Virus record (IMG/VR): IMGVR_UViG_3300021389_002073
Span: 1 to 64,000 of that record
DNA: 64,000 nucleotides
Reading direction: 5' to 3' (one strand)
Origin: a virus
The position numbers and the translations under genes were made by a program. Below the pieces are notes generated by a model. That model searched no databases. It had not been told where the DNA came from and was given only the letters and a program-made list of their open reading frames with translations. Below are positions 7,863 to 55,679 of this stretch, one piece after another (position 1 is the first letter of the stretch; the number at the start of each line of letters is the position of its first letter).

Positions 7863-7867
7863 GTAGA

Positions 7868-7875
7868 TATTTACC
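7868..7875 (-). promoter_or_regulatory. late promoter element, leftward
   Basis: Minus strand GGTAAATA, then 5 nt, then the ATG at 7862. It directly abuts the rightward element at 7876-7883, so the two divergent elements are back to back without a spare base. Confidence 0.68.
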
Positions 7876-7883
7876 GTTAAATA
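7876..7883 (+). promoter_or_regulatory. late promoter element, rightward
   Basis: GTTAAATA, then TAGCT, then the ATG at 7889. The 5-nt gap matches the opposite element and predicts transcription from the start codon. Confidence 0.68.
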
Positions 7884-7888
7884 TAGCT

Positions 7889-10166: not shown

Positions 10167-10762
10167 TCTACCCTCGGACCGTTTGCAATAAAAAATGCAG
10201 CAATCCACTTGGCTCCTTTAGTAATTGGCATGCCTTCATGTATTGTCATTTTGTTTATTTTTTCATCTTCATAGTCGTACTCAAAGTACATCATTCCTCC
10301 TTTTTCAGGAGTAACACAAACACCTAACTCTGGAAACTTACATTCGCCTCCGTCATATCCATCATTTAACCAAAATATTGCAGTTGCTTTTCTATCACCT
10401 CCTTTTGCGTAATAAGCAATGTCTTCTGGTGTGTATGGAAAGTCGTGGTGCAGTCCAAAGTATTGGCCTGTATCGTATCTATAGATATCCCCAGCTTCAA
10501 TATGACTGTCAGGTATTTTTAATACTTCACAAATTTTATTTCTAAAAAATTGTCTATCTTCAGTTGAGGTGTCCCAACTAATGCTACGTTGTTCTACTTC
10601 CTCAGTAATTTGTCCGTATGTTTGTTCTCTAGATTCTAACCCTGCATTAGGATTCATTCCTAGTTCTGTATATTTTTTAACAAACTTATCACAGGTTTCA
10701 TTATCTACAACATCTGTGTAAACAGAAATCCACGGGTGATCTAAATATAAAATGTTTTCCAT
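10163..10762 (-). CDS. prolyl 4-hydroxylase-like 2OG-Fe(II) oxygenase
   Basis: About 199 residues from ATG 10762 (in-frame ATGs at 10768 and 10777 are alternatives; 10762 gives a TAATG junction with the upstream stop). YFGLHHDFPY supplies the HxD pair, WLNDGYDGGECKFPE is the typical core strand, and TIHEGMPITKGAKW gives the distal His and the 2-oxoglutarate lysine. This is the P4Hc domain pattern and the best-defined oxygenase of the island. It sits in a run of four hydroxylase-like genes on the minus strand. Confidence 0.85.
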   Translation of the reverse strand: MENILYLDHPWISVYTDVVDNETCDKFVKKYTELGMNPNAGLESREQTYGQITEEVEQRSISWDTSTEDRQFFRNKICEVLKIPDSHIEAGDIYRYDTGQYFGLHHDFPYTPEDIAYYAKGGDRKATAIFWLNDGYDGGECKFPELGVCVTPEKGGMMYFEYDYEDEKINKMTIHEGMPITKGAKWIAAFFIANGPRVE

Positions 10763-11289
10763 TACCATGCGTTCCATATATACTTAGGCACTGTTCCGCA
10801 ATTTGTTCCGGCGTGCCAAATCTTTCTATCTTCCCACTCGTAAGTTGCACCTTGTGGAATATTATAAAATGTATCATTACCAGCAATAAAAATATGCCCC
10901 CATTGCGGACTGCCTATATGGCAATGATATCTAGGACAATCAGGAATGTTTTCTTCATTGTCATGTACGTCCCAATGAATAGGTGCAAAACGTCCTGGGT
11001 GTATTCTACTTATCCACACGTTTTTACAGTCTAATCCGTAAAATCTATTCCACTCTTTAACAATGATATCATCAAATTGTTTACCTGGAATAAACATATC
11101 CCAACCTGCTGTGCCACCTTCGTGTACAGTTTTAATGCCTGCTTCTTCCCACATATCTAATATAGGATCTAGTCCAGGAACAGTGTCACCACGCTTATGA
11201 CTAGGTCCTACAAACTCAGGTTCGACACTTGCACATTGTTCTATTACACTATCCCAATCAATAGTATTACATACACCTAAATGCTTCAT
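10762..11289 (-). CDS. cupin/2OG-type hydroxylase-like protein, paralogue of 11286-11864
   Basis: About 175 residues from ATG 11289, chosen for its ATGA overlap with the upstream gene. RFAPIHWDVHD gives an HxD pair and WHAGTNCG the distal His. The protein parallels its upstream neighbour throughout: TIDWDSVIEQC against VIDWDPIVDLC, HWDVHD against HWDVED, and WHAGTNCG against YHAGTCMG. Tandem duplication is therefore likely. An aspartyl-hydroxylase-like jelly roll is inferred; the substrate is unknown. Confidence 0.68.
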   Translation of the reverse strand: MKHLGVCNTIDWDSVIEQCASVEPEFVGPSHKRGDTVPGLDPILDMWEEAGIKTVHEGGTAGWDMFIPGKQFDDIIVKEWNRFYGLDCKNVWISRIHPGRFAPIHWDVHDNEENIPDCPRYHCHIGSPQWGHIFIAGNDTFYNIPQGATYEWEDRKIWHAGTNCGTVPKYIWNAW

Positions 11290-11864
11290 TTGTTCGGCCT
11301 TCCTAAAAAATGAAACAAGTATTGATGATGTACACCCATACAAGTTCCTGCATGATAGCTTCTATAACTATCCCATTCCCATATTTCGCCTTGTGCTACA
11401 TTATGAAATGCTTGTTCTTCTAACACTAGTACATTACCCCAACGTGGCTTGTCCATAAAACATACCCAACGTTTAAGTTCACCTAGTTTTAACCATTCTT
11501 CTTCTTTATCTTCTACGTCCCAATGATAAGGAACATTGTTACATGGAGCAACATCACTTACAAATACTCGCAACGGCTCTGCATCTATAATTTTAGCAAA
11601 CTTGTTTTGTATGTCAATATCAAAATGTTCTCCAGGATAGTAATCCCACCATTGAATTTCATCTAGGTTATAACCTGCTTTATCCCAAGTATCAATTACA
11701 TTGTGATATGAGCCTAGTAATTCTGGATTGTCTCTCCAGTTACCTTCTGAACGATCTACAACTGTCTTAACTGAATTATAATCGCCAGTGGTGCATTTAG
11801 CACACAGATCAACTATAGGATCCCAGTCTATAACATCTTTAGTTGTACCAACTAGTTTAGCCAT
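11286..11864 (-). CDS. cupin/2OG-type hydroxylase-like protein, paralogue of 10762-11289
   Basis: About 192 residues from ATG 11864; a TTG six bases upstream is a weaker alternative. VPYHWDVED provides HxD, and YRSYHAGTCMG the second His. The start lies inside the last codons of the upstream gene, and the end forms ATGA with the next start, so all three are coupled. It is the likely duplicate partner of the following gene. Iron-dependent hydroxylation is inferred from the motif only. Confidence 0.68.
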   Translation of the reverse strand: MAKLVGTTKDVIDWDPIVDLCAKCTTGDYNSVKTVVDRSEGNWRDNPELLGSYHNVIDTWDKAGYNLDEIQWWDYYPGEHFDIDIQNKFAKIIDAEPLRVFVSDVAPCNNVPYHWDVEDKEEEWLKLGELKRWVCFMDKPRWGNVLVLEEQAFHNVAQGEIWEWDSYRSYHAGTCMGVHHQYLFHFLGRPNK

Positions 11865-12546
11865 CTCCAAACAATTCCTTGTATATGTAACTCATGTTTT
11901 CATCTCCCCATAAAACATGTTCTCCTAGACTACGCTTAAACATAATTTCTAAATTGACCTTATCGTCAATTGGCTCACCTGTTTCGTCTAGTCTAAATTG
12001 TGCTGTGTCGTGTATAATACCTTGCATATATTTTTGCTCAATGAAAGGATCGTCAATAGGAACACAGCCGTACCAATCAATTGCTTTCATTTGTTTTGTA
12101 TCTGTAATATAGTGACAGTGTGGATACATTGTTAACTTGTAGATACCTTCATCATACTGGTCAACTATAATATCTCTAATTTGCCTACGCCACATATACT
12201 CAGGCCACTCTTTAATTTCAGGATCATTAATTATTTGGTTACAGCTCTTGCCATACCATTTAATATAAATCTTTTGATTTTTGTAATCAATGTCTTTAAC
12301 TTCTGGTGCATACTTTTTATCTTTAAAAAGCTCTAAGTATGTTAGTTCGTTTTGAAAAAACCAATCAACAACTTCTTTAGTGTAAAATGGCCTTGGTTTG
12401 TTTTCCATCTTTTGATATTCGCTATCAACATTGTAATTCTTACAAAACGTTGTTCCGTCTTCACTTATAAGAGGTTCATAAGTTTGCTGAGCCATACACG
12501 GCCAGCCTTCTGGATCTAGTTTAAGATATGGTTGCCATTCCTTCAT
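11857..12546 (-). CDS. conserved island protein, paralogue of 7889-8581
   Basis: A 229-residue protein with the same block order as the protein at 7889-8581 (PLISEDGTTFCKNY, VKDIDYKNQKIYIKW, GIYKLTMYPHCHYI). The function is unknown; a degenerate kinase-like fold is one possibility. The paralogue pair sits in two different blocks of the island, each next to hydroxylase-type genes, which suggests the blocks arose partly by duplication of a module. It overlaps the upstream gene by 4 nt and the downstream gene by 8 nt. Confidence 0.6.
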   Translation of the reverse strand: MKEWQPYLKLDPEGWPCMAQQTYEPLISEDGTTFCKNYNVDSEYQKMENKPRPFYTKEVVDWFFQNELTYLELFKDKKYAPEVKDIDYKNQKIYIKWYGKSCNQIINDPEIKEWPEYMWRRQIRDIIVDQYDEGIYKLTMYPHCHYITDTKQMKAIDWYGCVPIDDPFIEQKYMQGIIHDTAQFRLDETGEPIDDKVNLEIMFKRSLGEHVLWGDENMSYIYKELFGDG

Positions 12547-13202
12547 TCGACTATTCCTATTTTCATTTTTGGTGGAACAGGAATTTGATTTACTAATCCT
12601 GCTTCAATATCAAACTCTATACCTTGCTTAACAACTTTTACATTGCTAATAATTTTTGTGTTGTTTGCTGCCCTGTTTAACCAAGGACTTAAATGTTTAT
12701 CAAACTCGTATCGTATGTTTCCTTCGACTCCTGTAATTCTAACATGTTGCGGATCATTAATAATATTTTTAGGTAGTAATTTTCTTACAACTAACTGCGC
12801 TCTTATCTCAGCACCTATATTCATAGCGGTGTGTGGAACACCAGCATCCATGTCATACCATTTGCCGTCAAGCACAGTCTTAAACATTTCTTCTTTTTCT
12901 AAATCAATAAGGTAGGCTTCATCTCCGCAAAGATTTAAATGCCAACGATTGTCAATGTCTGCATGTGAAGTATAACAACTAGGCGATTCTAAAATAATAA
13001 TTCTTCCTTGTCCTTTAGGTTCTGGCAAACTATTCCAAATAGTTTCCCATGCTGTTCCTAAGAACTCCGGCTTCAACTGCCAAGGATCATAAAAGAAGCT
13101 GCCAGTTTGCTCAGATATATCAAACTTTCCAATATCATACACATCGCCCATTACGCCTGCTATATCATCTAAAGATACTGTATATTTGGTATTTTGGATC
13201 AT
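12543..13202 (-). CDS. HxD-type (aspartyl hydroxylase-like) oxygenase
   Basis: About 219 residues from ATG 13202. That start is chosen because a GGTAAATA element ends exactly 5 nt upstream; a longer start at 13238 would place the promoter inside the gene. CYTSHADIDNRWHLNL supplies the HxD, DAGVPHTAMN the distal His, and RAQLVVRK an arginine for 2-oxoglutarate. It opens the seven-gene leftward block that ends at 9108, and diverges from the PP-loop ATPase gene. Confidence 0.72.
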   Translation of the reverse strand: MIQNTKYTVSLDDIAGVMGDVYDIGKFDISEQTGSFFYDPWQLKPEFLGTAWETIWNSLPEPKGQGRIIILESPSCYTSHADIDNRWHLNLCGDEAYLIDLEKEEMFKTVLDGKWYDMDAGVPHTAMNIGAEIRAQLVVRKLLPKNIINDPQHVRITGVEGNIRYEFDKHLSPWLNRAANNTKIISNVKVVKQGIEFDIEAGLVNQIPVPPKMKIGIVE

Positions 13203-13207
13203 ATGCA

Positions 13208-13215
13208 TATTTACC
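13208..13215 (-). promoter_or_regulatory. late promoter element, leftward
   Basis: Minus strand GGTAAATA, then TGCAT, then the ATG at 13202. It decides the start of the hydroxylase gene. Confidence 0.68.
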
Positions 13216-13243
13216 GGAACTAAATTAACTGTGTACATAACTT

Positions 13244-13251
13244 GGTAAATA
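13244..13251 (+). promoter_or_regulatory. late promoter element, rightward
   Basis: GGTAAATA, then TGAAT, then the ATG at 13257. It carries the same octamer and gap as the opposite element, giving a mirror-image divergent pair. Confidence 0.68.
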
Positions 13252-13256
13252 TGAAT

Positions 13257-13994
13257 ATGCGTAAAATAAAGATTGACGATGTGATCTTACCAATGGATAT
13301 AAAATGGAAAAACGTTGGTATTAGTTTAAGTGGTGGAGCAGATAGTGCGTTACTTGCATACTTAATTTGCCAAAATCTACATGACAACTGTAAAGTACAC
13401 ATTAGTACACAGGTTAGAATGTGGAAATCACGACCATGGCAAGAGCATATTTCAGCAGAAGTATTTGATTGGTTTGTAGGACATTTTCCTGATCTTGAGT
13501 TTGAAAGACACGTTAACTTTATTCCACCTGAACTTGAAGAGCCACATACCACTATGATTAAAGATGAAAATGGCAAAATGAAGTCAGGTAACAGAATTAT
13601 ACTAAGATCGTTCAATGAGTACCTTGCACATAAAGTAAACTTAGATGCATGGTATGCAGCCGTTACACTAAATCCTGATGTAGAATTTGACGGTGCAATG
13701 AGTGATAGACAAGAGCCGGCAATAGATGCTATAATGACACATATGGGCGTAACAGTTTGTCACCCTTTTATTGCTAGTAAAAAAGATTGGGTCATAGGAC
13801 AATACATAAAAAATGATATTGCTGAGTTGTTAAACATCACTAGAAGTTGTGAAGGTGACAACGATCAATATCCGGAAGTCTTCAAAGGACTAGATTATAA
13901 AACATACACACCCGGACAATATGTACCAACATGTAAGAAATGTTTTTGGTGTCAAGAAAGACAATGGGGAGTAATGAATGCCATGCAAAAGTAA
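13257..13994 (+). CDS. PP-loop ATPase, QueC-like
   Basis: About 245 residues from ATG 13257, fixed by the promoter spacing. SGGADS (25-30) is the PP-loop that binds ATP and adenylates a carboxylate. The C-terminus has SCEGDN followed by CKKCFWCQER, matching the zinc site of QueC, 7-cyano-7-deazaguanine synthase. Other PP-loop enzymes such as asparagine synthetase-like proteins also share the fold, so the substrate is open. A QueD-like gene lies at 24183. It overlaps the following radical SAM gene by 17 nt. Confidence 0.7.
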   Translation: MRKIKIDDVILPMDIKWKNVGISLSGGADSALLAYLICQNLHDNCKVHISTQVRMWKSRPWQEHISAEVFDWFVGHFPDLEFERHVNFIPPELEEPHTTMIKDENGKMKSGNRIILRSFNEYLAHKVNLDAWYAAVTLNPDVEFDGAMSDRQEPAIDAIMTHMGVTVCHPFIASKKDWVIGQYIKNDIAELLNITRSCEGDNDQYPEVFKGLDYKTYTPGQYVPTCKKCFWCQERQWGVMNAMQK

Positions 13995-15249
13995 AACATT
14001 TTGTATGCATCCTTTTACAGGATTAGCAACAAGAGAAGATGGCGCAATTAAGATCTGTTGCCGTAGTGCTCCTATTGGAGACATTAAAGACAACACACTA
14101 GAAGAGATTTGGAACGGCGACAAAATGAAAGAAGTTCGTCGACAGGTTATGAATGACGAACGTCCTGATGTTTGTGAGCCTTGCTTTAGATTAGAAGATC
14201 AGGGTGTACAGAGCTTACGACAGCGTCATACAGCAGGAGTAATACCTGAAGCAAGGATCAACTTATACCCAGACGCATTAGACGCACTAGAAGATGATTA
14301 CAGTATGCCGTTTGAAATGCCTACTATGGAAGTTAAACTTAACAATCTATGTAATTTAAAGTGTCGTATGTGTAACCCATTAGATAGTACACAATGGAAA
14401 GACTGGGACCAAGTTACAGAATTTTATAAAAAAGAAAATAACTTTCTTATACCTACAGTTAATAAATTAGTAGACACACCAGGCAAGTATATTGATGCAT
14501 TTAATGATACAGACAACTGGTGGAAGTCTTTTGAAAAACTACTGCCGCACTTTAGACGTGTAGAGTTTGCAGGTGGAGAACCTTTAATGGATCCTCAGCA
14601 CTATAAAATTTTAGATATGTTAGCACCATACGGTAAAAATATCGAAATCAAGTATGCAACAAACGGCACCACACTAGGAATCAAAGGCGGACGTACAATA
14701 CACGATTACTGGCCTAAGTTTAAAAGTGTTGCAGTTAATGTTTCAATTGATGGTGTACATGATGTATATGAATACATCAGAGGAAACGGTAAGTTTGAAG
14801 AGATTGAAGAAAACATTAAGATAATGAAAACTATACCAACAGTAAGTAGAATAGTTGGAGCATTTACAGTACAAGCAAACAACATAATGCAAATAGATAA
14901 AGTAATAGAATACTTCATGGAAAACATGGACATTATTTTCTATAGTCATAGGGTGCAATATCCAAGAGCGTTATCAGCACAATGTATTCCGCCAGATCTA
15001 AAACAAAAAGTTATTGCTAAATTAGAAGCAATGAAAACAAAAGTGTTAGATTACAAACTTGTTAAAAGTGACGAACGTATTAAGGACTTTACACTAACGC
15101 AAATTCAGGATAATATTAACTTCTTAGAAGCAGATGATCTACACAACGAACTATGGCAAGACTGCATTAATTTTAATCGCAACTTAGATAAGAGTCGTAA
15201 ACAAGGACCATTTGAAGTTATTAATCCGGAGTTTGCTCCGTATGTTTAA
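13978..15249 (+). CDS. radical SAM protein with N-terminal twitch-like domain (island member 4)
   Basis: A 423-residue protein. Residues 1-75 form a cysteine domain (C9, CC at 27-28, C66, C69) of the FCxxPFxxLATxxDGxIKICC type. The radical SAM core follows, with CNLKCRMC (C125, C129, C132), FAGGEPLM and YATNG. Its domain order matches the protein at 16134-17537 on the opposite strand, so these are paralogues. The N-terminal cysteine domain could bind an auxiliary Fe-S cluster. It overlaps its neighbours on both sides. The substrate is unknown. Confidence 0.88.
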   Translation: MPCKSKTFCMHPFTGLATREDGAIKICCRSAPIGDIKDNTLEEIWNGDKMKEVRRQVMNDERPDVCEPCFRLEDQGVQSLRQRHTAGVIPEARINLYPDALDALEDDYSMPFEMPTMEVKLNNLCNLKCRMCNPLDSTQWKDWDQVTEFYKKENNFLIPTVNKLVDTPGKYIDAFNDTDNWWKSFEKLLPHFRRVEFAGGEPLMDPQHYKILDMLAPYGKNIEIKYATNGTTLGIKGGRTIHDYWPKFKSVAVNVSIDGVHDVYEYIRGNGKFEEIEENIKIMKTIPTVSRIVGAFTVQANNIMQIDKVIEYFMENMDIIFYSHRVQYPRALSAQCIPPDLKQKVIAKLEAMKTKVLDYKLVKSDERIKDFTLTQIQDNINFLEADDLHNELWQDCINFNRNLDKSRKQGPFEVINPEFAPYV

Positions 15250-16159
15250 AATAGCGTCTAGTTATGATCGGCAAAACAGCGTTCATGTTGAGTGGAATCT
15301 TGGCAAACGTTGTAACTTTGATTGTAGTTATTGTCCAGCAGAAATACACGATAACACTAGTCCACACACAAATATTAAAGTATTAATAGATGCAGTTGAT
15401 GCACTAGCTGAAACTGGTAAATCAATGCGTGTAAGTTTTACAGGCGGCGAACCGTGTGTACACCCACAGTTTACAGAACTAGTTGATCATGCAAGTCAGC
15501 GTGTTGATTGGATCAATGTAACTACTAACGGAACACGTACAGCAAAGTACTACAGTGACCTTAACGTAAATCATATTGTGTTTAGTTTGCATGTAGAAGA
15601 TGACGAGCATTGGAGAAGATGTGCAGAAACTGTGTTAATGTTTTCTCAGATAAATGAAGGATATGCATCTCCGCAAAAGCCATTTCAAGTTAATTTAATG
15701 GCACATCATAAATTTATGGATAGAGTAAAAGAGTGTGCTACAATATTTGACGGACACGGTATTCCTTATGTTGTAAGACGAATAAGATGGACAGAAGGTG
15801 ATCATGATGTGTTTGATGATTTAAAATATGAAGGCAAAGACTTAGAATGGATATTGTCTAAAACATCTACTGTAGAACCTAATGTTATTATTGATGATAA
15901 AACTAAAATGCATGCCAACGATGTTATTAAAAAACATCTAAATCAATTTGAAGGTTGGAAATGTAGTGCAGGTATTGAAAGCCTAATGATTAATTGGGAC
16001 GGTGAAGTTCATCGTGCTACTTGTAGAGTTGGTGGAAGTATAGGTAACATTTATGACGGTAGTTTTGAACAACCGGAAGAGTGGATAACTTGTACTCGTA
16101 AGTGGTGTACTTGTGCTGCTGATATACCCCTTACTAAAGTAAGTGATCTAGTTCAGTAA
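15242..16159 (+). CDS. radical SAM protein (island member 5)
   Basis: About 305 residues from ATG 15242, which follows a GGAG at a sensible distance; a start ten codons upstream lies deeper in the previous gene. CNFDCSYC (C24, C28, C31), SFTGGEPCVHP and NVTTNG define the core. The C-terminus has CSAG, ATCRVGG and CTRKWCTC, an auxiliary cysteine set shared in outline with the protein at 19214-20203 (CNAG, CS, CITSSC). The 3' end overlaps the leftward radical SAM gene by 26 nt. Confidence 0.88.
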   Translation: MFKIASSYDRQNSVHVEWNLGKRCNFDCSYCPAEIHDNTSPHTNIKVLIDAVDALAETGKSMRVSFTGGEPCVHPQFTELVDHASQRVDWINVTTNGTRTAKYYSDLNVNHIVFSLHVEDDEHWRRCAETVLMFSQINEGYASPQKPFQVNLMAHHKFMDRVKECATIFDGHGIPYVVRRIRWTEGDHDVFDDLKYEGKDLEWILSKTSTVEPNVIIDDKTKMHANDVIKKHLNQFEGWKCSAGIESLMINWDGEVHRATCRVGGSIGNIYDGSFEQPEEWITCTRKWCTCAADIPLTKVSDLVQ

Positions 16160-17537
16160 ATATTTTTGCTGCATCTAATCCACGGATTGCATCTAACTTA
16201 TTAACGTATTCTTTAAAGCCAGGTAACATATGACTGTTATCACAACTATCCATATGCTTTAATAATCCTTCCCATTGACGCCATCCTTTAGGATTGTGTT
16301 TCCAAAACTCATCGTCTTGTGTAAAGTTATCCCATAACCATTGTTTTAGTTCAGCAAACTTTTCACGTACTTCTTGCTTGTCTTTTTCAGGCAGTATTGT
16401 AATATTTAAGAATGTTGGTATGTGTACTAGATGTGCATTTACAAGACCGCCACCCATAACATGTCCGTCAATTAAACCAACATTCATCTTTTTAAAATTA
16501 CTGTTAACTTTCCATTTAATAAATTCAGGTATAGTTTTTATATTGAATATCTGCACTGCTGTTGCAATACTAACATGAATGTTATCTGGTGTGTTGTCTA
16601 GCATGTGTAAAGTTTTTTCAACTTGATTAAAGTCTGTTGGAAATCTAATATATTCATCACGCTTTTTATATGAATCAATACTTACAGCAAACTTAACTTT
16701 CTTAAACTTACTCCATATATCAATTAGTTCTTCGTCAACTAGTAAACCATTAGAATTATATCTTACTAATATTTTGTCTGCATACCCTTGTTTAATAATT
16801 TCTTCTAGAAAGCGTTTATGCTCTCTAATCATTAATGGCTCTCCTCCTGCGAAATATACTTGCTTCAGGTAAGGTATTTGTGCATTAAGCTCTTGCCAAA
16901 AAGTATCTTTTTCATGCCATTTATTATTAAAAAGTTTTCTATCCCACTGCATTTGTCTTTTAACTTCTGGGTCTTGTAGCACAGGAATAAGTTTTTTATG
17001 GTCCGCAACCCACTTACTACTGTCGTGAGGGCTACACATTACACACTTAATATTACATGTATGTCCTAATCTTAGATCCAGATATTGTAATTGTTCAGGT
17101 ACGGTTCCGTCTTCTTGTGTTTGTGCAATAAGCTCTGGTATATCAACACCTTCGTCATTTTTCCATGTTGCACTTTCCCATATACGTTTGCTAACAATAC
17201 CTTGTGATTCTTCTTTGAAACAGCCTTTACAACTTGCAGGAATTTCTCCACGTAACATTGTTTTACGCACACTTTTCATGTAATCGTTATTCCATGCTTC
17301 CATAGGAGTGTGTTTACCAAAGTTTGCAGGCTTGCCATCTTCCATCTTTACAAGTCCTACTTCATGATCGTCACCTGCACCACTTGCATTAGATGTACAG
17401 CATAATCTCATATCACCATTTGGTCTAGTTGCCATGTGTATCCAAGGTAACACACAAAATGATTTTGTAGATGCTTCTGCAAGTTCTCTTTGGAACTTAC
17501 CTAGTCTGGTATCTTCTTTGTCGTAGTACCAAGTCAT
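16134..17537 (-). CDS. radical SAM protein with N-terminal twitch-like domain (island member 6)
   Basis: A 467-residue protein. The N-terminal cysteine domain (C28, CC at 46-47, CKGC near 103-106) is followed by the core with CNIKCVMC (C161, C165, C168), FAGGEPLM and RYNSNG. It is the opposite-strand paralogue of the protein at 13978-15249, about 45 residues longer, with an insertion between the two domains. Its ATG shares a base with the stop of the upstream radical SAM gene, so the two are coupled. Substrate unknown. Confidence 0.88.
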   Translation of the reverse strand: MTWYYDKEDTRLGKFQRELAEASTKSFCVLPWIHMATRPNGDMRLCCTSNASGAGDDHEVGLVKMEDGKPANFGKHTPMEAWNNDYMKSVRKTMLRGEIPASCKGCFKEESQGIVSKRIWESATWKNDEGVDIPELIAQTQEDGTVPEQLQYLDLRLGHTCNIKCVMCSPHDSSKWVADHKKLIPVLQDPEVKRQMQWDRKLFNNKWHEKDTFWQELNAQIPYLKQVYFAGGEPLMIREHKRFLEEIIKQGYADKILVRYNSNGLLVDEELIDIWSKFKKVKFAVSIDSYKKRDEYIRFPTDFNQVEKTLHMLDNTPDNIHVSIATAVQIFNIKTIPEFIKWKVNSNFKKMNVGLIDGHVMGGGLVNAHLVHIPTFLNITILPEKDKQEVREKFAELKQWLWDNFTQDDEFWKHNPKGWRQWEGLLKHMDSCDNSHMLPGFKEYVNKLDAIRGLDAAKIFTELDHLL

Positions 17538-18619
17538 TACAGCATTTCTCTTTCTATAAATTGATCTTGTGGTTGAGAGATATCAAAAGTTTTAAACTTA
17601 CCACATGTTCTTGCACACATAAGCATTTTATCTTCGTTCCACTTTTTCTTCCATATGTTTTGCCATACGTCAGAACTTATAATATTTTTTATTCCTTTTG
17701 TTGCATCAAGATTTTGTATACCACCAAAGTCGCTTATCATTTTATTGTATTGGTTACGCAACATGTCTACTACATCTTCACAAATATGTGTAGGATCGTA
17801 AAACGTCATTGGCGTTTGTGCTAACCAACAACAAGGTAATAAAGTTTTAAATCCGTCAATATAAATTTCTTTAATCTTTTGTACATGGCAGTCTATCTCT
17901 GCTTCATCTAACACTGACTTATAATCATCAATTACTTCTTTAGGTAAAAAATGTGTTTCAGTATCAGATGGTGCTTCTAAACTGTATATAGGTATTCTAT
18001 TGTTGTCCCACACATCATACTTAGGTTCAACTAAAAATCTTGATGTGTTCTTAACTGTGAAATCTTGAAAGCCTACTTCCTTTGCAATCTTTCTACATTC
18101 TTCTACTTGGTGCTCATTGTGTTTAAACTTGATATAAGTCCAGTTAGCACGACCACCTGCTTCAATAAATGTTTTTGCATTTTCAATAATCTTATTCCAG
18201 TCAGTGCCAACTCTATATAATTTGTGAGTGTCTTCTAAACCGTCAAGTGCAAAGTACACACAATGATCTTGTGGTAAAGACTGTGCTAGTTCTGCCCACC
18301 ATTTTGCATTTCTTAAACTGCCGTTTGTGTGAATTCCTATTGCAGTTTTAGGACTTGTTTCTTTTGCGTACTTACACATTTCAATGAGGTTGTCATTAAG
18401 TAAAGGGTCGCCAAAGTTTCCGCAAAAATATATACGGTCTACTGTTTCTAATACTTCTTTGTTTATAATAGTTTTAAAATCTTCTAATGTCCAGCCAACA
18501 ATTTTTAGTAATGGGTTTTCAATACCACTGTGTATATTACGTGAACACATAGGACACTTGGCTTGGCAATTTGTTGTCAGCTCAATATGTATTGTTTTAA
18601 GATCTGAAAAGTCAAACAT
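17537..18619 (-). CDS. radical SAM protein (island member 7)
   Basis: A 360-residue protein with CQAKCPMC (C18, C22, C25). The usual GGEP loop is replaced by FCGNFGDPLL, a substitution seen in some radical SAM subgroups, and IHTNGS follows. Cysteines near the C-terminus (LPCCW, MCARTCG) may hold a further cluster. It is flanked by another radical SAM gene and a methyltransferase-like gene with one-base overlaps. It is the most divergent in the SAM-binding loop of the eight members. Confidence 0.86.
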   Translation of the reverse strand: MFDFSDLKTIHIELTTNCQAKCPMCSRNIHSGIENPLLKIVGWTLEDFKTIINKEVLETVDRIYFCGNFGDPLLNDNLIEMCKYAKETSPKTAIGIHTNGSLRNAKWWAELAQSLPQDHCVYFALDGLEDTHKLYRVGTDWNKIIENAKTFIEAGGRANWTYIKFKHNEHQVEECRKIAKEVGFQDFTVKNTSRFLVEPKYDVWDNNRIPIYSLEAPSDTETHFLPKEVIDDYKSVLDEAEIDCHVQKIKEIYIDGFKTLLPCCWLAQTPMTFYDPTHICEDVVDMLRNQYNKMISDFGGIQNLDATKGIKNIISSDVWQNIWKKKWNEDKMLMCARTCGKFKTFDISQPQDQFIEREML

Positions 18620-19224
18620 TAAAATCTTCCTATTAGCATGTAACGTGTATATTTGGGTAATTCTAATTGATCTTTAACTAGCACAGTGTTTAATTTAGAT
18701 TTCTTTTTAAAACTATCAAGGTCTCTTGAACAATTTAAATGTTCTTCTAGTTCAAAGTAGTTATTAGATTGTAAAATCACTTCTGAACTCTTTGGCACAC
18801 GTTTTGCCCACTTGTTATATTGTTGCTGTGTAAGATGTTCGCAACTTGTATTAATAACCATGTAAGGTTGATTGGTATATTCATACTCACACATGTCAGC
18901 GGTAACTGCTGTAAATCGACCTTCCATTTCTTGACGTTTATTAATTGTGGTTGCTGTCTCTGCACACTTAGGATCAATATCAACACTTGTGATATGCTTG
19001 AAACCTATTGTGCTGTTAAACAATAAATTTGCTAATACTCCGTTCCATCCTCCGAATATGACACAACTAATATTAGACACATGATGATTCCTTTGTAATG
19101 TTTCGACTAACCATTCTTTAGATTTTAATTGTCCACCCCAAAAACTTTCAAGTGTACGATCTCTATCTTCGCTATTGCGAACTGCATCCATCCAAAATTT
19201 TATATCTTCTATTTCAACTTTCAT
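18619..19224 (-). CDS. SAM-dependent methyltransferase-like protein (class I fold)
   Basis: About 201 residues from ATG 19224, which overlaps the upstream gene by 11 nt; an upstream in-frame start was rejected. VIFGGWNGVLA takes the place of the SAM-binding GxGxG loop, and TSVDIDP carries the acidic residue that normally binds the ribose. NTSCEH could hold catalytic residues. A small-molecule or peptide methyltransferase is inferred. It lies between two radical SAM genes, fitting a tailoring role. Confidence 0.62.
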   Translation of the reverse strand: MKVEIEDIKFWMDAVRNSEDRDRTLESFWGGQLKSKEWLVETLQRNHHVSNISCVIFGGWNGVLANLLFNSTIGFKHITSVDIDPKCAETATTINKRQEMEGRFTAVTADMCEYEYTNQPYMVINTSCEHLTQQQYNKWAKRVPKSSEVILQSNNYFELEEHLNCSRDLDSFKKKSKLNTVLVKDQLELPKYTRYMLIGRF

Positions 19225-20203
19225 GTAGTACCTTTGGTATCTTGCTGTCTGCACTGCTTACACAAGAGCTAGTAATGCATTTAGATGGTGTCTTAAACAG
19301 CGTAAAACCGCCCTGTAGCGTTCCTAAAGGGATATCGCTGCAACTATATGCTCTCTTAACTTCATCACCCCTTATAATGCAGCTTTGATACCCTGCATTG
19401 CAATGCCAATTTTTAAACTTGTTGAAGTTAAATGCATTCATTCTTTCTGCTTGATCCAATCCGTAATGGTTTCCTTTGGCATCTTCCAAATACATTTGCA
19501 TGACTTGTTCGCCTTTCCAATTTTGTGGAAAGCCTGTTTGTAACTTATCAATTTGCTCATCTGTATAACCATCAACTATTCTAGACGCGGTAGGGTCGGA
19601 CTGCGGTTTAAGAGTGACGTTAATTCCTTTGTCTGCGAATCTACTACAACGCTCATAGTATTCTTCAAAGTGTTCAGGAACCATAACTTGATTGATTGTA
19701 ACAAATACTCCTCCCTCCATGAGTTGCAAACATCTATCACCAAAGTCTTTTTCGTTTGCAAATTCTGCGTGATAACTTGCAGTGATGCTGCGACGTGTCA
19801 AGTGACTGGTGTTGTCTATAAATCTTGCCCACCATTTCTCACCTGGACTTAAATTAGTTGTAAGGTGTATGCTTTGATACTTAGCCTCATTGTCATTTGC
19901 ATAGTATTCAACTAGGTCACCAAACTTTTTATATGCTGTTGGTTCTCCTCCACTGAAACTAAAATGAAACTCAGTAAATCCATTTTCTCTCGCTTGTCTT
20001 TTAATTTCATCTATTGCATTTGTATACACTTCAAAGTCTTGATGATCCGGAACATTTGAATTTGCATACGGCCAACAGTAACTACAACTGTAATTACAAA
20101 AGCGACCAAGTATCCAACTAACGTTGAATAGTGGCTGTTTTAGCATTGTTGTTTGTCCGAACTTAACAATGTTGTGGAACGGAATAAGAGTAAAATCATT
20201 CAT
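19214..20203 (-). CDS. radical SAM protein (island member 8)
   Basis: A 329-residue protein with CNYSCSYC (C36, C40, C43), SFSGGEPTA and HLTTN. The C-terminal cysteines (WHCNAGYQSC, YSCSD, CITSSC) suggest an auxiliary cluster, and their order resembles the protein at 15242-16159. It starts the last leftward block of the island. Its late-type element ends 8 nt before the ATG, so a leader of about 3 nt is predicted. Confidence 0.88.
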   Translation of the reverse strand: MNDFTLIPFHNIVKFGQTTMLKQPLFNVSWILGRFCNYSCSYCWPYANSNVPDHQDFEVYTNAIDEIKRQARENGFTEFHFSFSGGEPTAYKKFGDLVEYYANDNEAKYQSIHLTTNLSPGEKWWARFIDNTSHLTRRSITASYHAEFANEKDFGDRCLQLMEGGVFVTINQVMVPEHFEEYYERCSRFADKGINVTLKPQSDPTASRIVDGYTDEQIDKLQTGFPQNWKGEQVMQMYLEDAKGNHYGLDQAERMNAFNFNKFKNWHCNAGYQSCIIRGDEVKRAYSCSDIPLGTLQGGFTLFKTPSKCITSSCVSSADSKIPKVLHES

Positions 20204-25442: not shown

Positions 25443-26258
25443 ATGGCATTAGAAAATCACAACTTCACAAAAGAAGAACGTAAAGCACAAAAGAGAGCTA
25501 GGCGTTTAGAAAAAGAACTTCGTAAGAGTCAAGCTCTTAGAGAGAACAATCAGCATGGTCCTGTTACACAAATTCTTTGTGTACGCTTTGGCAACAAATA
25601 CGGAAATGAATATGTTATAAAGTTACGTGATATGGTTGCAAGACATATTACTGTGCCATATCGTTTTAACTGTTTAACAGATGATCCTAAGCCACTAGAG
25701 GGTGTAAACAATATTGTTATACCTAATAAAGGTTACCAAAGAGGTTGGTGGCACAAAGTTCATATGTTTGATCCTAGTCTTCCTTTAGAAGGTAGAATAT
25801 TATATATGGATTTAGATGTTGTTATTCATAACAATATTGATAAACTGTGCAATGTTTGGTTAGATGACTTTATGGGCATTAGAGATTTTAATAGAAAGTT
25901 CCATCCAAACTACAAGTATCTAAACAGTTCTGTTATGGCTTGGAATGCTAGAACACAATCTCATGTTTACCAAAACTTTATGGCTAATCCAGCACAAGCA
26001 CAAAGACTTCATGGTGATCAAGATTGGATTTGGCAAAATTGCAGAGAAGTTCTTAAGTTTTGGCCTGAAGAATGGGTTATGAGTTATAAATGGGAAATAC
26101 GAGATAAGAGTGAGCTTCATATGAAAGACGGACAAAGACAGTTTAAAACTGTTAGAGATGACGTAGTTCCTCCAAAAGAAAATTCTATTATGGTTTTTCA
26201 TGGTGATCCAAATCCTGGACAAGTAAAAGATAAGTTAATCATTGACAACTGGAAATAA
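25443..26258 (+). CDS. GT-A type glycosyltransferase
   Basis: A 271-residue protein. After a basic, coiled-coil-like first 35 residues comes a GT-A core: QILCVRFGNKYGNEY, then ILYMDLDVV with the metal-binding DLD at 123-125, and HGDQDWI for the acceptor side. This is the GT8-like pattern of nucleotide-sugar dependent enzymes. It lies 6 nt after kdsA. The last codons contain the -35 and -10 boxes of the next gene. Confidence 0.75.
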   Translation: MALENHNFTKEERKAQKRARRLEKELRKSQALRENNQHGPVTQILCVRFGNKYGNEYVIKLRDMVARHITVPYRFNCLTDDPKPLEGVNNIVIPNKGYQRGWWHKVHMFDPSLPLEGRILYMDLDVVIHNNIDKLCNVWLDDFMGIRDFNRKFHPNYKYLNSSVMAWNARTQSHVYQNFMANPAQAQRLHGDQDWIWQNCREVLKFWPEEWVMSYKWEIRDKSELHMKDGQRQFKTVRDDVVPPKENSIMVFHGDPNPGQVKDKLIIDNWK

Positions 26259-26270
26259 TGACTGTATACT
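26242..26270 (+). promoter_or_regulatory. sigma70-type promoter for a predicted leaderless gene
   Basis: TTGACA, 17 nt spacer, TATACT, then GTAAGT and the ATG at 26277. The expected start is the A of the ATG. Most of the promoter lies inside the end of the glycosyltransferase gene. Confidence 0.78.
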
Positions 26271-26276
26271 GTAAGT

Positions 26277-27101
26277 ATGTTTAGTTTTAGAAAGAAAAAA
26301 TCTTGGTTACGTTTCTACTCATTAGATCCTAATGTAGCAGAATTGTATCCTATTGAGCCTGCTGGTAAGGCAGAACGTGATTTCAACGATGTTGGAACAC
26401 GTAGAGTAAGACCTGAAAGCGGCAATCAACTTTCTAAAAACTGTCCTGGCATTAAGCCGCTTATGAAGTCAGGATATATTATGAGAGCTCCTGCAGATTT
26501 TACAATTGCTACAGGTCCTAATGTAGACGGTGGCATTGGTTGGGAAGTTCCTTTTCAGTTTGTAAAACCTAGCACAGGAAATTACAATATAAAAGGTTGG
26601 GAATATTATATCAACTGGCATGCACCTTGGCAAACTGAGCCACTTATTCCTCATGACACTGATAACACAAACAAGCCTTACTTAAATTCAGCAGTTAAAG
26701 TTGAAACACCTTGGCGTGTAAAAGCAAGTGAAGATATGTTGCTGTTACAAATGCCAGTGTCCTATAACAACGAAACAAGATTTACGGCTGCATATGGCAT
26801 AGTTGATCCTATGTACATGCATGCCATTCCAATTCAATTATTTTGGCATGTACTAGAAGGTAAAACATTAGTTAAAGCAGGTACTCCACTTGCACAGTTT
26901 GTACCTATTAGTAGAAGTATGCTACACGATCATGAGATTATTATTGACGAAGCAGGTGATCTCGAAAAAGATATTGAAGATGCATTTACATATGCTAATC
27001 ATCATAAGTTTGCAAACACAGACAATGTTGTTGCAAAGGTAAAACGTATTAAACAACTGTTTGATCGTTTTCGTAAAAAAAATCCCAATGCTAAAATTTA
27101 G
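26277..27101 (+). CDS. conserved phage protein of unknown function
   Basis: A 274-residue protein I cannot assign. It starts with a basic segment (MFSFRKKKSW), continues as a beta-rich, aromatic domain (GWEVPFQFV, then GWEYYINWHAPWQTEP, then TPWRVKASEDMLLLQMPV) and ends in a basic helix (FDRFRKKNPNAKI). GTPLAQFVPI recalls beta-barrel sugar- or nucleotide-binding proteins. It lies among glycan-related genes. No ribosome-binding site is present; the message is predicted to start at the ATG. Confidence 0.6.
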   Translation: MFSFRKKKSWLRFYSLDPNVAELYPIEPAGKAERDFNDVGTRRVRPESGNQLSKNCPGIKPLMKSGYIMRAPADFTIATGPNVDGGIGWEVPFQFVKPSTGNYNIKGWEYYINWHAPWQTEPLIPHDTDNTNKPYLNSAVKVETPWRVKASEDMLLLQMPVSYNNETRFTAAYGIVDPMYMHAIPIQLFWHVLEGKTLVKAGTPLAQFVPISRSMLHDHEIIIDEAGDLEKDIEDAFTYANHHKFANTDNVVAKVKRIKQLFDRFRKKNPNAKI

Positions 27102-27113
27102 AGAAAGGAAAAT

Positions 27114-27254
27114 ATGCTTAACGTAATACTAAAAGTACTAGCCATAATTGTTTTGCTAGAGTTAGCAATTGTTTATGGTTCTCAAGTGTATGACGAATAC
27201 ATGTTCTGGGAACAGTACAACCGATTTTATACTGACATTCCGATAGAGGAATAA
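27114..27254 (+). CDS. small single-span membrane protein
   Basis: A 46-residue frame starting at ATG 27114 with AAAGGA upstream. Residues 2-22 (LNVILKVLAIIVLLELAIVY) form one membrane helix, followed by an acidic, aromatic tail. The gene ends 5 nt before the HAD protein start. Function unknown; small membrane proteins of this kind are common in T4-like genomes. Confidence 0.65.
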   Translation: MLNVILKVLAIIVLLELAIVYGSQVYDEYMFWEQYNRFYTDIPIEE

Positions 27255-27259
27255 ACAGT

Positions 27260-27994
27260 ATGAAGTTTATATTCGATGTAGACGGTACATTGACGCCAAG
27301 TCGTCAAAAGATGGACGAAGAGTTCTCAAAATTCTTCTTTGACTTTTGCACAGAAAACAAAGTTTACCTTGTTACAGGCAGTGACAAAGACAAAACTGTT
27401 GAACAAGTAGGTAATGTTATTTACGGCTTGGCTAGACGTGCTTATAATTGTAGTGGTGCTGACGTATATAAATCATCTAAAAACGTTAGACGAAGCGATT
27501 GGAAACTTCCCCATTCAGCAAGAACTTTCTTATTAGATAAACTAGAAGAAAGTGAATTCCCACTTAGAACAGGACTACACATTGAAGAACGACCAGGTAT
27601 GATTAACTTCAGTGTTGTAGGTCGCAATGCTACAATGGGCGAACGTAAGTTATACGCAAAGTATGACACTAAACACAATGAACGTAACATAATTGCTGAC
27701 TTATTCAACAAACAATTCTCTGATATGCAGGCGACTGTAGGCGGAGAAACAGGTTTAGATATTGCGCCTATTGGCTCAGATAAAAGTCAGATACTTGTAG
27801 ACTTTGACAAAGATGACAGTATTATGTTCTTTGGCGATCGTTGTGATCCTGCAGGAAATGACTTTCCTATTGCCGAAGCACTAAGACAAAACTTCAAACG
27901 TTCAAAGATTTATCATGTCAATGATTGGAAAGAAACATTTAGAATTTTAAGTGATCCTCGATTGACTTCAACACAAGAAGGTAGTATACTATAA
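27260..27994 (+). CDS. HAD phosphatase, phosphomannomutase-like
   Basis: A 244-residue HAD-superfamily protein. FDVDGTLTP carries the nucleophile and acid-base aspartates (D6, D8). MINFSVVGRNATMGER, GGETGLDIAPIGSDKS and FFGDRCDPAGNDF resemble the eukaryote-type phosphomannomutase family in order and spacing. It may be a mutase or a sugar phosphatase. Its position next to kdsA and glycosyltransferase genes fits sugar metabolism. Its last codons contain the promoter of uvdE. Confidence 0.78.
   Translation: MKFIFDVDGTLTPSRQKMDEEFSKFFFDFCTENKVYLVTGSDKDKTVEQVGNVIYGLARRAYNCSGADVYKSSKNVRRSDWKLPHSARTFLLDKLEESEFPLRTGLHIEERPGMINFSVVGRNATMGERKLYAKYDTKHNERNIIADLFNKQFSDMQATVGGETGLDIAPIGSDKSQILVDFDKDDSIMFFGDRCDPAGNDFPIAEALRQNFKRSKIYHVNDWKETFRILSDPRLTSTQEGSIL
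27962..27990 (+). promoter_or_regulatory. sigma70-type promoter for uvdE, predicted leaderless
   Basis: TTGACT, 17 nt spacer, TATACT, then ATAAGT and the ATG at 27997. It has the same geometry as the promoter at 26242-26270. Confidence 0.78.
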
Positions 27995-27996
27995 GT

Positions 27997-29043
27997 ATGA
28001 ATAAGAGAATAGGCTTTGCCTGCAAATACATGTGGCACGATCAAACGCAGAAGAAAAAACTGCTAGAAGAAATCCAACGACCACTAAATACACGCAGTAC
28101 AACAGTGCAGTGGCTCAACAGGCAGACACGTGAAGTTGCAGAACAACGCTTGTGGGATATCATGGTCCACAACATACAGAGCTACGCTAATTTGATAGAG
28201 TACGTAGGGAGTTTAACAGATGATTTACGAATGGTTAGGCTGGGTAGTGATGTACTTCCTGTTTATACTGAGCCTACTTGGGGCTATTATTGGCGTAAGC
28301 CAGACGTCCGCGAGTACTGCGAGAAACACTTTGCGCCGATCGGCGAAAGAGCAAGAGCCCTCGATGTCCGACTATCGATGCACCCAGGCCAATTTACTGT
28401 ACTTGCGAGCGACAACCCCGAGATTGTAGAGAGGAGCATAGAAGAATTTGAATATCACACCGATGTCATCAGGTGGATGGGATACGGGAAGTCCTTCCAG
28501 GACTTCAAGTGCAATGTCCACATATCCGGTCGCCAAGGTCCAGCCGGTATCAAACACGCAGTTGACAAGAGACTTTCTCCAGAAGCGAGAAATTGCATTA
28601 CGATCGAGAACGATGAGATGTCATGGGGCATCGACGCAAGCCTCGAACTTGTTGACACATGCGCATTGGTATTGGACATACACCATCACTGGGTCCGTAC
28701 AGGCGAATATATACGTCCCACCGACGATAGATATCTACGCATGATGGATTCATGGCGTGGTGTCCGACCTGTGATACATTATTCTGTATCACGTGAAGAT
28801 CTACTTGTAGGTCATAATCCAAACACTTTACCAGATATGGAGAGTTTACTTGAACAAGGATTCAAAAAGCAAAAACTACGTGCTCATAGTGACTTTATGT
28901 GGAATGGGGCTGTTAACGATTGGGCTCTTACTTTTCGAGACACAGCAGATATTATGGTAGAAAGCAAGGCAAAGAATCTTGCTAGTAAGGCTTTATACGA
29001 ATATGATTTAAGCCGAGAAGCTCTCGCCGCAACCGCAGCTTGA
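27997..29043 (+). CDS. uvsE: UV damage endonuclease UvdE/UvsE
   Basis: A 348-residue TIM-barrel repair nuclease that nicks DNA 5' to UV photoproducts. IGFACKYM, RLSMHPGQFTVL, NVHISGRQG, ENDEMSWG, LDIHHHWV and PVIHYSVSRE supply the metal ligands. It would repair phage DNA in sunlit water. The middle (about 28300-28760) is visibly richer in G and C than both ends and its neighbours, suggesting a recombined segment. The 3' end overlaps the opposite iscA gene by 36 nt. Confidence 0.93.
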   Translation: MNKRIGFACKYMWHDQTQKKKLLEEIQRPLNTRSTTVQWLNRQTREVAEQRLWDIMVHNIQSYANLIEYVGSLTDDLRMVRLGSDVLPVYTEPTWGYYWRKPDVREYCEKHFAPIGERARALDVRLSMHPGQFTVLASDNPEIVERSIEEFEYHTDVIRWMGYGKSFQDFKCNVHISGRQGPAGIKHAVDKRLSPEARNCITIENDEMSWGIDASLELVDTCALVLDIHHHWVRTGEYIRPTDDRYLRMMDSWRGVRPVIHYSVSREDLLVGHNPNTLPDMESLLEQGFKKQKLRAHSDFMWNGAVNDWALTFRDTADIMVESKAKNLASKALYEYDLSREALAATAA

Positions 29044-29340
29044 TGTTGCGTTAGGGTTTTTAATTACAAGTTGAGAACCAAATACTTCCTTAATAAAATC
29101 AATCTCAGTACCTGCAACATACATTATACTAAATTGATCTATAGCGAATTGGCCGTTTGGTAGGTCAATTATTTCATCTTTTTCTTCTAATTCTTCAGTC
29201 ATGGCCCACTCATAACCGAAACCGGCACACCCACCGCCTTTGACACTGAGTCTGACGATGGGTTTACCTTGTTCATCTATCAGCTTGGTCATATGATCGA
29301 CCGCTGATTGAGTTAGTTTAACTAGTCCTGCTTTTTCCAT
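29008..29340 (-). CDS. iscA: A-type Fe-S carrier protein (IscA/HesB family)
   Basis: About 110 residues from ATG 29340; a longer in-frame extension was rejected because it overlaps the small membrane gene and lacks similarity to the family. GGGCAGFGYEW (C38) and SSCGCGESF (C102, C104) are the three cluster-binding cysteines. Family members carry [4Fe-4S] clusters to target enzymes. It is the last gene of a leftward unit with a membrane protein and superoxide dismutase. Confidence 0.92.
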   Translation of the reverse strand: MEKAGLVKLTQSAVDHMTKLIDEQGKPIVRLSVKGGGCAGFGYEWAMTEELEEKDEIIDLPNGQFAIDQFSIMYVAGTEIDFIKEVFGSQLVIKNPNATSSCGCGESFSA

Positions 29341-29492
29341 AGTGTCCAAATACCATACCCGATGGCTGCATAGGCTGCTAATTTCGCAAAAGGTCCTGCG
29401 ATTAAAACAACTACTCCAACACCAATTAGAACTGCACCGTCCCATGATGTTCTTTCTTCTAGTCTGTCTTTTACCCAATTAATAGGATTCAT
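29322..29492 (-). CDS. small membrane protein
   Basis: A 56-residue protein from ATG 29492, which follows AAGGAG at good spacing. Residues 20-50 are hydrophobic (AVLIGVGVVVLIAGPFAKLA and onward), enough for one long or two short membrane helices. It ends in WKKQD. The gene starts just after the dismutase stop and overlaps iscA by 19 nt. Function unknown. Confidence 0.6.
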   Translation of the reverse strand: MNPINWVKDRLEERTSWDGAVLIGVGVVVLIAGPFAKLAAYAAIGYGIWTLWKKQD

Positions 29493-29493
29493 A

Positions 29494-30057
29494 TTATTCT
29501 CCTTGTATGCGGTCATTGATTACTGACCAATTTATAATCTTCCAAATATTTGCAAGGTACTTTGATTTATCTGCTTGATAATCTAAAGCCCATGCATGTT
29601 CCCACCAATCAACTAACAATGCAATTTTCATACCACGCTTGTAACTGTGATTTTTAATTGTTTTGATTCGTCCTTTGGTATCAAGATACAACCAACCTGA
29701 ACCTTGAATGCCCATGGCCACCTTTGAAAACTCTTCTTTAAAGTTTTCAAAAGAACCAAAATTGCTATCAATAAGTTCTTTAGATATCCCTGTAGGTTTA
29801 TTACCAACAGAAACAGGTTGTAACTGAGGGAAAAACAAATTATGTAACTTTGCGCCTCCATAATTGAAATCATCATCGCCATCTTTGTCGTTGTATCTTT
29901 TAACATACGCTGACGCAAGTTTGCCATAATGATAATCAAGTGTGTCGCTGCTCATTACTTCCAGCTCATTCTTTTCATAAGGCAATTTTTCTTGCACTAA
30001 GTTTTCACGAACTGTATCTGCTTCAATGACTATTTCTCTGTATAATTTTATGGTCAT
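29494..30057 (-). CDS. sod: iron/manganese superoxide dismutase
   Basis: A 187-residue enzyme converting superoxide to peroxide and oxygen. LPYEKNELE and TLDYHYGKL (H43), KLHNLFFPQL (H72), GSGWLYLD, and VDWWEHAWALDY (D150, H154) supply the metal ligands. The start is ATG 30057; a GTG further up would include the promoter. It lies next to iscA and iscU, so it may protect Fe-S clusters. A dismutase gene is uncommon in tailed phages as far as I know. Confidence 0.93.
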   Translation of the reverse strand: MTIKLYREIVIEADTVRENLVQEKLPYEKNELEVMSSDTLDYHYGKLASAYVKRYNDKDGDDDFNYGGAKLHNLFFPQLQPVSVGNKPTGISKELIDSNFGSFENFKEEFSKVAMGIQGSGWLYLDTKGRIKTIKNHSYKRGMKIALLVDWWEHAWALDYQADKSKYLANIWKIINWSVINDRIQGE

Positions 30058-49882: not shown

Positions 49883-49900
49883 GGGAGTTTTTACACTCCC
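49883..49900. terminator. hairpin between convergent genes
   Basis: GGGAGT and ACTCCC form a 6-bp stem with a short T-rich loop, between the mazG operon and the opposite phoH gene. It may stop transcription from either side; no clear U-tract. Confidence 0.4.
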
Positions 49901-49907
49901 CTAAACT

Positions 49908-54869: not shown

Positions 54870-55679
54870 ATGGACTACTATTCTATACTAGGCGTCAATA
54901 GAGATGCTTCGGAAAAGGAACTTAAATCAGCATACAAGAAAGCAAGTATGCAACATCATCCTGACAGGGGTGGTGATGAAGAAAAGTTTAAGAAAATTAA
55001 CGAAGCATATTCAACTCTAAAAGATCCTGTAAAAAGACAACAGTACGATAATCCTCAACCACAAGGCTTTGGCCCTAACGGTTTTGAAGGAATGAATCCT
55101 AATGGGTTTGAAGACCTATTTAGAAACTTTGGCTTTAATATGGGTCAACGCAGACCACAGAATAGACAAATTGATCTTGCTCTCGATGTAACAATGGAAG
55201 ATGTTTACAACGGTAAACAAATTGCTATGGAAGTTCAACTTCCTACAGGCAGAACTAAACTAATCGATATTGATATTCCAGCAGGTGTTGAAGAAGGACA
55301 AACTGTAAGGTATGCAGGAATGGGAGATAATTCTATCCAAAACATTCCAGCAGGAGACCTAATGGTGCATATTCGTGTTCGCAATCACCCCAGGTTCCAA
55401 CGCTACGGTGATAATATACTATGTGAAGAAAAAATTCTTATATGGGATTTGATGTTAGGCACACACGCAGTAGTTACTACCCTTTCAGGCAGACAAATTA
55501 AATTAAATGTACCAGCAGGCACACCACCCGATACTACACTAAGTTGTAACGGTGAAGGATTACCAAATATAAGAACAAAAAAGAGAGGAAACTTGTTAGT
55601 AAAAATTAAAGCACTTATGCCAAGAGAGTATACAGACGAACAACGTAAAAAAATTATGGAAATAAAACATGGACTATAA
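54870..55679 (+). CDS. dnaJ: DnaJ-type co-chaperone, no zinc finger
   Basis: A 269-residue protein. The J-domain (residues 1-62) has the HPD tripeptide at 30-32. A Gly/Phe-Asn-Pro-rich linker (GFGPNGFEGMNPNGFED) follows, and then the C-terminal substrate-binding domain (DLALDVTMEDVYNGKQIAME). The CxxCxGxG zinc repeats are missing, so it is a CbpA-like type. It could steer host DnaK toward virion proteins. It overlaps the deformylase gene. Confidence 0.92.
   Translation: MDYYSILGVNRDASEKELKSAYKKASMQHHPDRGGDEEKFKKINEAYSTLKDPVKRQQYDNPQPQGFGPNGFEGMNPNGFEDLFRNFGFNMGQRRPQNRQIDLALDVTMEDVYNGKQIAMEVQLPTGRTKLIDIDIPAGVEEGQTVRYAGMGDNSIQNIPAGDLMVHIRVRNHPRFQRYGDNILCEEKILIWDLMLGTHAVVTTLSGRQIKLNVPAGTPPDTTLSCNGEGLPNIRTKKRGNLLVKIKALMPREYTDEQRKKIMEIKHGL

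What the first reader, a model, noticed from the sequence alone, without database searches (positions are those of the whole stretch)
26242..27999. Two sigma70 promoters placed so that transcription starts at the ATG
At 26277 and 27997 a TTGACA/T box, exact 17-nt spacer and TATACT are followed by six bases (GTAAGT, ATAAGT) and the ATG. The expected start is the A of the ATG, and no ribosome-binding site exists. The boxes lie inside the preceding genes. This gives an early-promoter version of the leaderless design.
Basis: partly seen in the sequence, partly recalled or inferred. Interest (0 to 1): 0.7.

Follow-up and report, generated by a model that had tools for sequence, protein, structure and literature searches.

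The report
Leaderless sigma70 promoters in marine phages
In this group of uncultured marine phages, a recurring set of host-type promoters sits exactly six bases before the gene's ATG, so the message very probably starts at the start codon itself with no leader or ribosome-binding site; the design is known in bacteria, but here it is a distinct, evolutionarily kept class of phage promoter.

Summary
TTGACA-N17-TATACT-N6-ATG (26242-26279) and TTGACT-N17-TATACT-N6-ATG (27962-27999) precede a phrog_7084 gene and a uvdE gene. Across 22 contigs (1.40 Mb: the window's record and 21 records sharing one of these genes), strict sigma70 sites fall into two classes. One has ordinary leaders (16-59 nt, mostly with a Shine-Dalgarno). 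The other has a sharp spike at exactly 6 nt (25 distinct promoters, against 0-2 at each neighbouring distance). That places the A of the ATG at the preferred start position, 7 bp past the -10. At the spike the base before ATG is always a pyrimidine (25/25), the start codon is always ATG (23/23), and Shine-Dalgarno-like tetramers occur in 3/25 against 75/99. Seventeen of the 25 lie upstream of genes not used to fetch the contigs. A dnaJ-like gene is leaderless in 11/11 contigs but uses late-type TAAGTA-N5-ATG in seven and sigma70-N6-ATG in four. T4, Syn9, HTVC008M, PA5oct and Atu_ph07 show no such spike. I conclude that these are real sigma70-type promoters making leaderless mRNAs. "Early" timing and the start sites themselves are inferred, not measured. 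It is a new variant of a known design.

The parts
26242..26270 (+). sigma70-type promoter 1: TTGACA - N17 - TATACT
   Evidence: 11 of 12 consensus positions
26271..26276 (+). 6-nt discriminator GTAAGT; predicted transcription start at 26277 (A of ATG)
   Evidence: 7-bp rule (PMC5730371); spike at 6 nt
26277..27101 (+). 274-aa gene, phrog_7084 family (unknown function), predicted leaderless
27962..27990 (+). sigma70-type promoter 2: TTGACT - N17 - TATACT, inside the 3' end of the preceding gene
   Evidence: 10 of 12 consensus positions
27991..27996 (+). 6-nt discriminator ATAAGT; predicted transcription start at 27997 (A of ATG)
27997..29043 (+). uvdE-like UV-damage endonuclease gene (PF03851), predicted leaderless
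25443..26258 (+). preceding glycosyltransferase-like gene (phrog_1962); its last codons hold the -35 of promoter 1
27260..27994 (+). preceding phosphomannomutase-like gene (PF03332); its last codons hold promoter 2
54870..55679 (+). dnaJ-like gene with late-type leaderless start (ataagtactagtATG); orthologues elsewhere use sigma70-N6-ATG

Best explanation
Both sites are working promoters for the host's primary sigma70-type RNA polymerase. The -10 box is fixed six bases before the ATG, so that polymerase, which prefers to start 7 bp past the -10 on a purine after a pyrimidine, begins at the A of the ATG. The mRNA is leaderless and its 5'-terminal AUG would be read without a Shine-Dalgarno, probably by 70S ribosomes. 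They belong to a distinct class of leaderless sigma70 promoters in this phage lineage, parallel to a larger leaderless class driven by late-type TAAATA promoters. A likely consequence (inferred) is compact internal promoters that give one gene of an operon its own expression. Shown by sequence comparison: promoter match, locked spacing, initiator signature, ATG-only starts, lack of Shine-Dalgarno, conservation. Inferred: actual start site, translation mode, timing, benefit.
For: Promoter match far above chance. -10-to-ATG distances in 22 contigs: 29 at 6 nt (25 distinct), 0-2 at every other distance from 0 to 15, 112 at 16-59. The spike follows the -10: three of the 25 have an 18-nt spacer and still N6. 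Reversed-pattern control 0 of 44 records. Shine-Dalgarno-like tetramers 3/25 at N6 against 75/99 leadered, p 6e-9. Base -1 is pyrimidine 25/25 against 49/97, p 9e-7; start codon ATG 23/23. Seventeen of 25 lie upstream of genes not used as search seeds. uvdE orthologues at about 80% identity keep N17/N6 with different spacer and upstream sequence. dnaJ-like gene leaderless in 11/11, with the promoter class swapped. Start position 7 bp past the -10 with Y-1/R+1 is established for bacterial RNA polymerase (PMC5730371). A -10 motif 6-7 bp before the ORF gives leaderless expression in Deinococcus (PMC12340547).
Against: No transcript or protein data. The host is unknown, so its promoter preferences and skill with leaderless mRNA are assumed. 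Some uvdE orthologues lack the promoter and look Shine-Dalgarno-led or positioned at the end of the previous gene, so leaderlessness is not essential for that gene. The phrog_7084 promoter varies little among near relatives, and in L011-L014 its -10 is weaker (TAATAT) or ambiguous. The 22 contigs are not independent, although identical spacers were counted once.
Confidence: 0.86

Rival explanations
1. Operon genes translated by read-through and termination-reinitiation; the promoter-like boxes are incidental.
For: The uvdE ATG is 2 nt after the preceding stop (TAAGTATG) and the 26277 ATG is 18 nt after one. Some uvdE orthologues without the promoter start close after the upstream gene.
Against: The stop-to-ATG distance varies from 2 to over 200 nt among N6 genes while -10-to-ATG stays 6. 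Incidental boxes would not give a spike at one distance or a pyrimidine at -1 in 25/25.
Confidence: 0.06
2. True sigma70 promoters, but starts are scattered and most mRNAs carry a leader of a few bases or begin inside the coding sequence.
For: Start selection varies by 1-2 bp with discriminator and NTP levels (PMC5730371).
Against: Selection for exactly 6 nt, against 2 at 5 nt and 1 at 7 nt, with Y at -1 and A at +1, points to one main start.
Confidence: 0.06
3. The TATAAGTA/TGTAAGTA overlapping the ATG is a late-type (T4 gp55-like) promoter element.
For: TAAATA and ATAAGTA elements are enriched before genes in this lineage.
Against: Late-type elements sit exactly 5 nt before the ATG (114-119 cases). 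Here the element runs into the ATG, and a full -35/-10 pair with N17 is present.
Confidence: 0.02

Closest known systems
-10 motif adjacent to ORFs in Deinococcus-Thermus (PMC12340547)
   Same: -10 box about 6-7 bp before the start codon, no ribosome-binding site, leaderless mRNA.
   Different: Bacterial chromosome, about one third of genes, where a -10 motif alone can act as promoter; here phages, with near-consensus -35 and 17-nt spacer, side by side with a late-type leaderless class.
Lambda cI mRNA from PRM (cI is named as a leaderless mRNA in PMC9031893; its start at the ATG from own knowledge)
   Same: Phage gene transcribed by host sigma70 polymerase with the start at the AUG.
   Different: A single activator-dependent repressor gene; here a repeated class in a probably lytic lineage, serving repair, chaperone and other genes.
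TA-led (leaderless) genes of Zheng et al. 2011 (PMC3160421) and Caulobacter leaderless mRNAs (PMC4117421)
   Same: TA-rich -10-like signal about 10 bp upstream of the start codon; 375 leaderless mRNAs measured in Caulobacter.
   Different: Cellular genomes; no phage promoter class described.
T4-type late promoters (TATAAATA)
   Same: Same phages carry TAAATA elements; Pelagibacter phage HTVC008M also shows a 5-nt spike (12 cases).
   Different: The sites in question are -35/-10 promoters and fail the late spacing; T4 shows only 4 late cases at 5 nt and no sigma70 case at 6 nt.

Membership tests
sigma70-type promoter | -35 near TTGACA, 16-18 nt spacer, -10 near TATAAT, above chance | tested here: met
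   11/12 and 10/12 matches; strict sites 7 against 0.24 expected; lineage spacer histogram peaks at 17 (170 sites)
sigma70-type promoter | transcription by host holoenzyme in vivo | not testable with these tools
   no culture or RNA data
leaderless mRNA gene | -10 placed so that position +1 is the A of the start codon | tested here: met
   N6 at both sites; lineage spike at 6 nt; preferred start 7 bp past the -10 (PMC5730371)
leaderless mRNA gene | initiator signature Y(-1)R(+1) | tested here: met
   T-A at both sites; 25/25 in the class against 49/97 for leadered ATGs
leaderless mRNA gene | no Shine-Dalgarno at working distance | tested here: met
   3/25 against 75/99; AAGG before 27997 is too far and not conserved
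leaderless mRNA gene | AUG rather than GUG/UUG start | tested here: met
   ATG 23/23; AUG preference from PMC9031893
leaderless mRNA gene | mapped 5' end at the A of the AUG | not testable with these tools
   needs primer extension or Cappable-seq
T4-type late promoter | TAAATA-like element 5 nt before a leaderless ATG | tested here: not met
   the TAAGTA at both sites runs into the ATG; late class peaks at 5 nt
translationally coupled operon gene | fixed short stop-to-ATG distance across the class | tested here: not met
   distances 2-247 nt; for uvdE itself coupling remains possible

The most novel reading that the evidence does not exclude
A lineage of marine phages has made leaderless initiation a standard expression mode in two transcription systems at once (host sigma70-type and late-type promoters), and selection preserves leaderlessness of particular genes such as a dnaJ-like chaperone even when the promoter class is exchanged. 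This would mean that leaderless translation itself, not the promoter, is what is being kept, for instance to favour these genes when phage infection alters host initiation.
Probability: 0.4. Interest if true: 0.72.

Novelty: new variant of a known kind. Interest (0 to 1): 0.55.

Why it matters
Leaderless phage genes are usually discussed through single cases such as lambda cI. Here they form a sharply defined promoter class in uncultured marine phages, beside a second, larger leaderless class of late-type promoters. It gives an exact rule for annotating starts (-10 + 6 nt, late element + 5 nt), shows how a phage can fit single-gene promoters into coding DNA, and makes testable whether selection acts on leaderless translation itself.

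Tried and rejected
Late-promoter reading of TATAAGTATG: rejected on spacing. Alternative upstream start codons: excluded by in-frame stops. Chance: rejected. Phage-encoded sigma70 (Pfam region 2) or IF3 as part of the mechanism: none found in 16 records; ribosomal protein S21 in four records but not in the window's own, so no common factor. mRNA folding at the 5' end: no difference, mean -5.0 kcal/mol in both classes. Host identification failed: phrog_7084 relatives occur in cyanophages, the clamp loader is nearest to Pseudomonas and Agrobacterium jumbo phages, and the Gp23 capsid family was found only in one distant contig, G011. The literature library held no survey of leaderless promoters in such phages, but most subscription papers are missing from it.

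Full report
What was claimed and what is there. Both are present as described: TTGACA-N17-TATACT-GTAAGT-ATG at 26242-26279 and TTGACT-N17-TATACT-ATAAGT-ATG at 27962-27999. The window is part of a 67,209-base viral record. It holds seven strict sigma70 sites, all on the + strand, where shuffles give 0.24. The downstream genes are a phrog_7084 protein of unknown function and a uvdE-like UV-damage endonuclease. At the first site the -10 is intergenic and only the -35 side lies in the preceding gene; at the second, both boxes lie inside the preceding gene.

Test by comparison. I collected relatives of both genes and, through them, 21 further phage contigs; with the window's record this makes 1.40 Mb. 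Every strict TTGACN-N16-18-TATANT site was scored for the distance from the -10 to the next ATG that opens 30 or more codons. Of 204 sites, 112 have 16-59 nt. A separate spike of 29 (25 with distinct spacers) stands at exactly 6 nt; every other distance from 0 to 15 nt has 0-2. The reversed pattern is absent from all 44 records searched. In the spike the distance is tied to the -10: three members have an 18-nt spacer and still 6 nt. Eight of the 25 belong to the two seed genes; the other 17 lie before about ten other gene families, including a dnaJ-like gene, a cytidylyltransferase-like gene and a QueE-like gene (family labels for the last two are my reading of the sequences, not a database result).

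Independent signatures of a start at the A. Bacterial RNA polymerase prefers to start 7 bp past the -10, on a purine preceded by a pyrimidine (PMC5730371). At the spike the preceding base is T or C in 25/25, against 49/97 for the ATGs of leadered genes. The start codon is ATG in 23/23, as expected if a 5'-terminal AUG is needed (PMC9031893). Shine-Dalgarno-like tetramers occur in 3/25, against 75/99 in leadered genes from the same contigs. The distance to the stop of the upstream gene varies from 2 to 247 nt, so translational coupling is not the common factor.

The late-type parallel. That design also holds: TAAATA lies exactly 5 nt before an ATG in 114-119 cases, with pyrimidine at -1 in 111/114. 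Examples in the window are at 22655, 59223, 62872 and 63171. The most telling case is the dnaJ-like gene (54870 in the window). It is predicted leaderless in all 11 contigs where it was found, but seven use the late-type element (TAAGTA) and four a sigma70 promoter. The promoter class has been exchanged while the leaderless geometry stayed. Whether the TAA[AG]TA element is read by a gp55-like factor is inferred from its resemblance to T4 late promoters.

Controls. T4, Syn9, HTVC008M, PA5oct and Atu_ph07 have no sigma70 site with an ORF-opening ATG at 6 nt (280 kb of PA5oct and 340 kb of Atu_ph07 were scanned). PA5oct has three raw pattern matches, but none is followed by a qualifying ORF as its first start. 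HTVC008M has a late-type spike of 12.

What remains open. No 5' end has been mapped, the host is unknown, and the time class of the sigma70 genes is not known. For uvdE the ATG lies 2 nt behind the upstream stop, so some translation from read-through mRNA is possible in addition. The spacer of the phrog_7084 promoter is nearly invariant among close relatives, so its conservation says little; the uvdE, dnaJ-like and other cases carry the comparison.

Verdict. A real, ordinary-looking promoter type in an unusual and strictly conserved position. It works like the leaderless promoters of Deinococcus (PMC12340547) and the leaderless mRNAs of Caulobacter (PMC4117421). What is new is its existence as a defined class in a marine phage lineage, together with a late-type leaderless class. 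I rate it a new variant of a known kind, interest 0.55.

Noticed in passing
window 54870-55679 and orthologues in G016, G027, G028, G033: A dnaJ-like gene is leaderless in all 11 contigs, but by two different promoter classes (late-type TAAGTA-N5-ATG or sigma70-N6-ATG).
   Followed up: partly
window 2844, 7889, 22655, 59223, 62872, 63171 (+); 2804, 7862, 31072 (-): TAA[AG]TA elements exactly 5 nt before the ATG: the late-type leaderless class; divergent gene pairs at 2804/2844 and 7862/7889 share one short region with such elements on both strands.
   Followed up: partly
window 3499-20203: Several radical SAM-like genes (3499, 4507, 13978, 16134, 19214) with modest PHROG matches, spread over both strands.
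   Followed up: no
window 28001-30000: G+C rises to 42% across uvdE against about 36% around it, which may mark recent acquisition.
   Followed up: no
window 55669-56187: Phage-encoded peptide deformylase directly after the leaderless dnaJ-like gene.
   Followed up: no
G006:57355-57510, G027:71509-71649, G025:4320-4475, G031:39130-39285 and 49805-49960: Ribosomal protein S21 genes in four relatives, two copies in G031; none found in the window's record.
   Followed up: no
L050, L053, L074, L083: Some uvdE orthologues have an N-terminal extension (MDLKFTTAGDF...); in L050 and L053 a sigma70-N6-ATG promoter sits before the extended start.
   Followed up: no
window 44592-46211: Tryptophan halogenase-like gene (phrog_2928); in cyanophage Syn9 a halogenase gene lies directly beside the phrog_7084 gene, here they are about 18 kb apart.
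   Followed up: no
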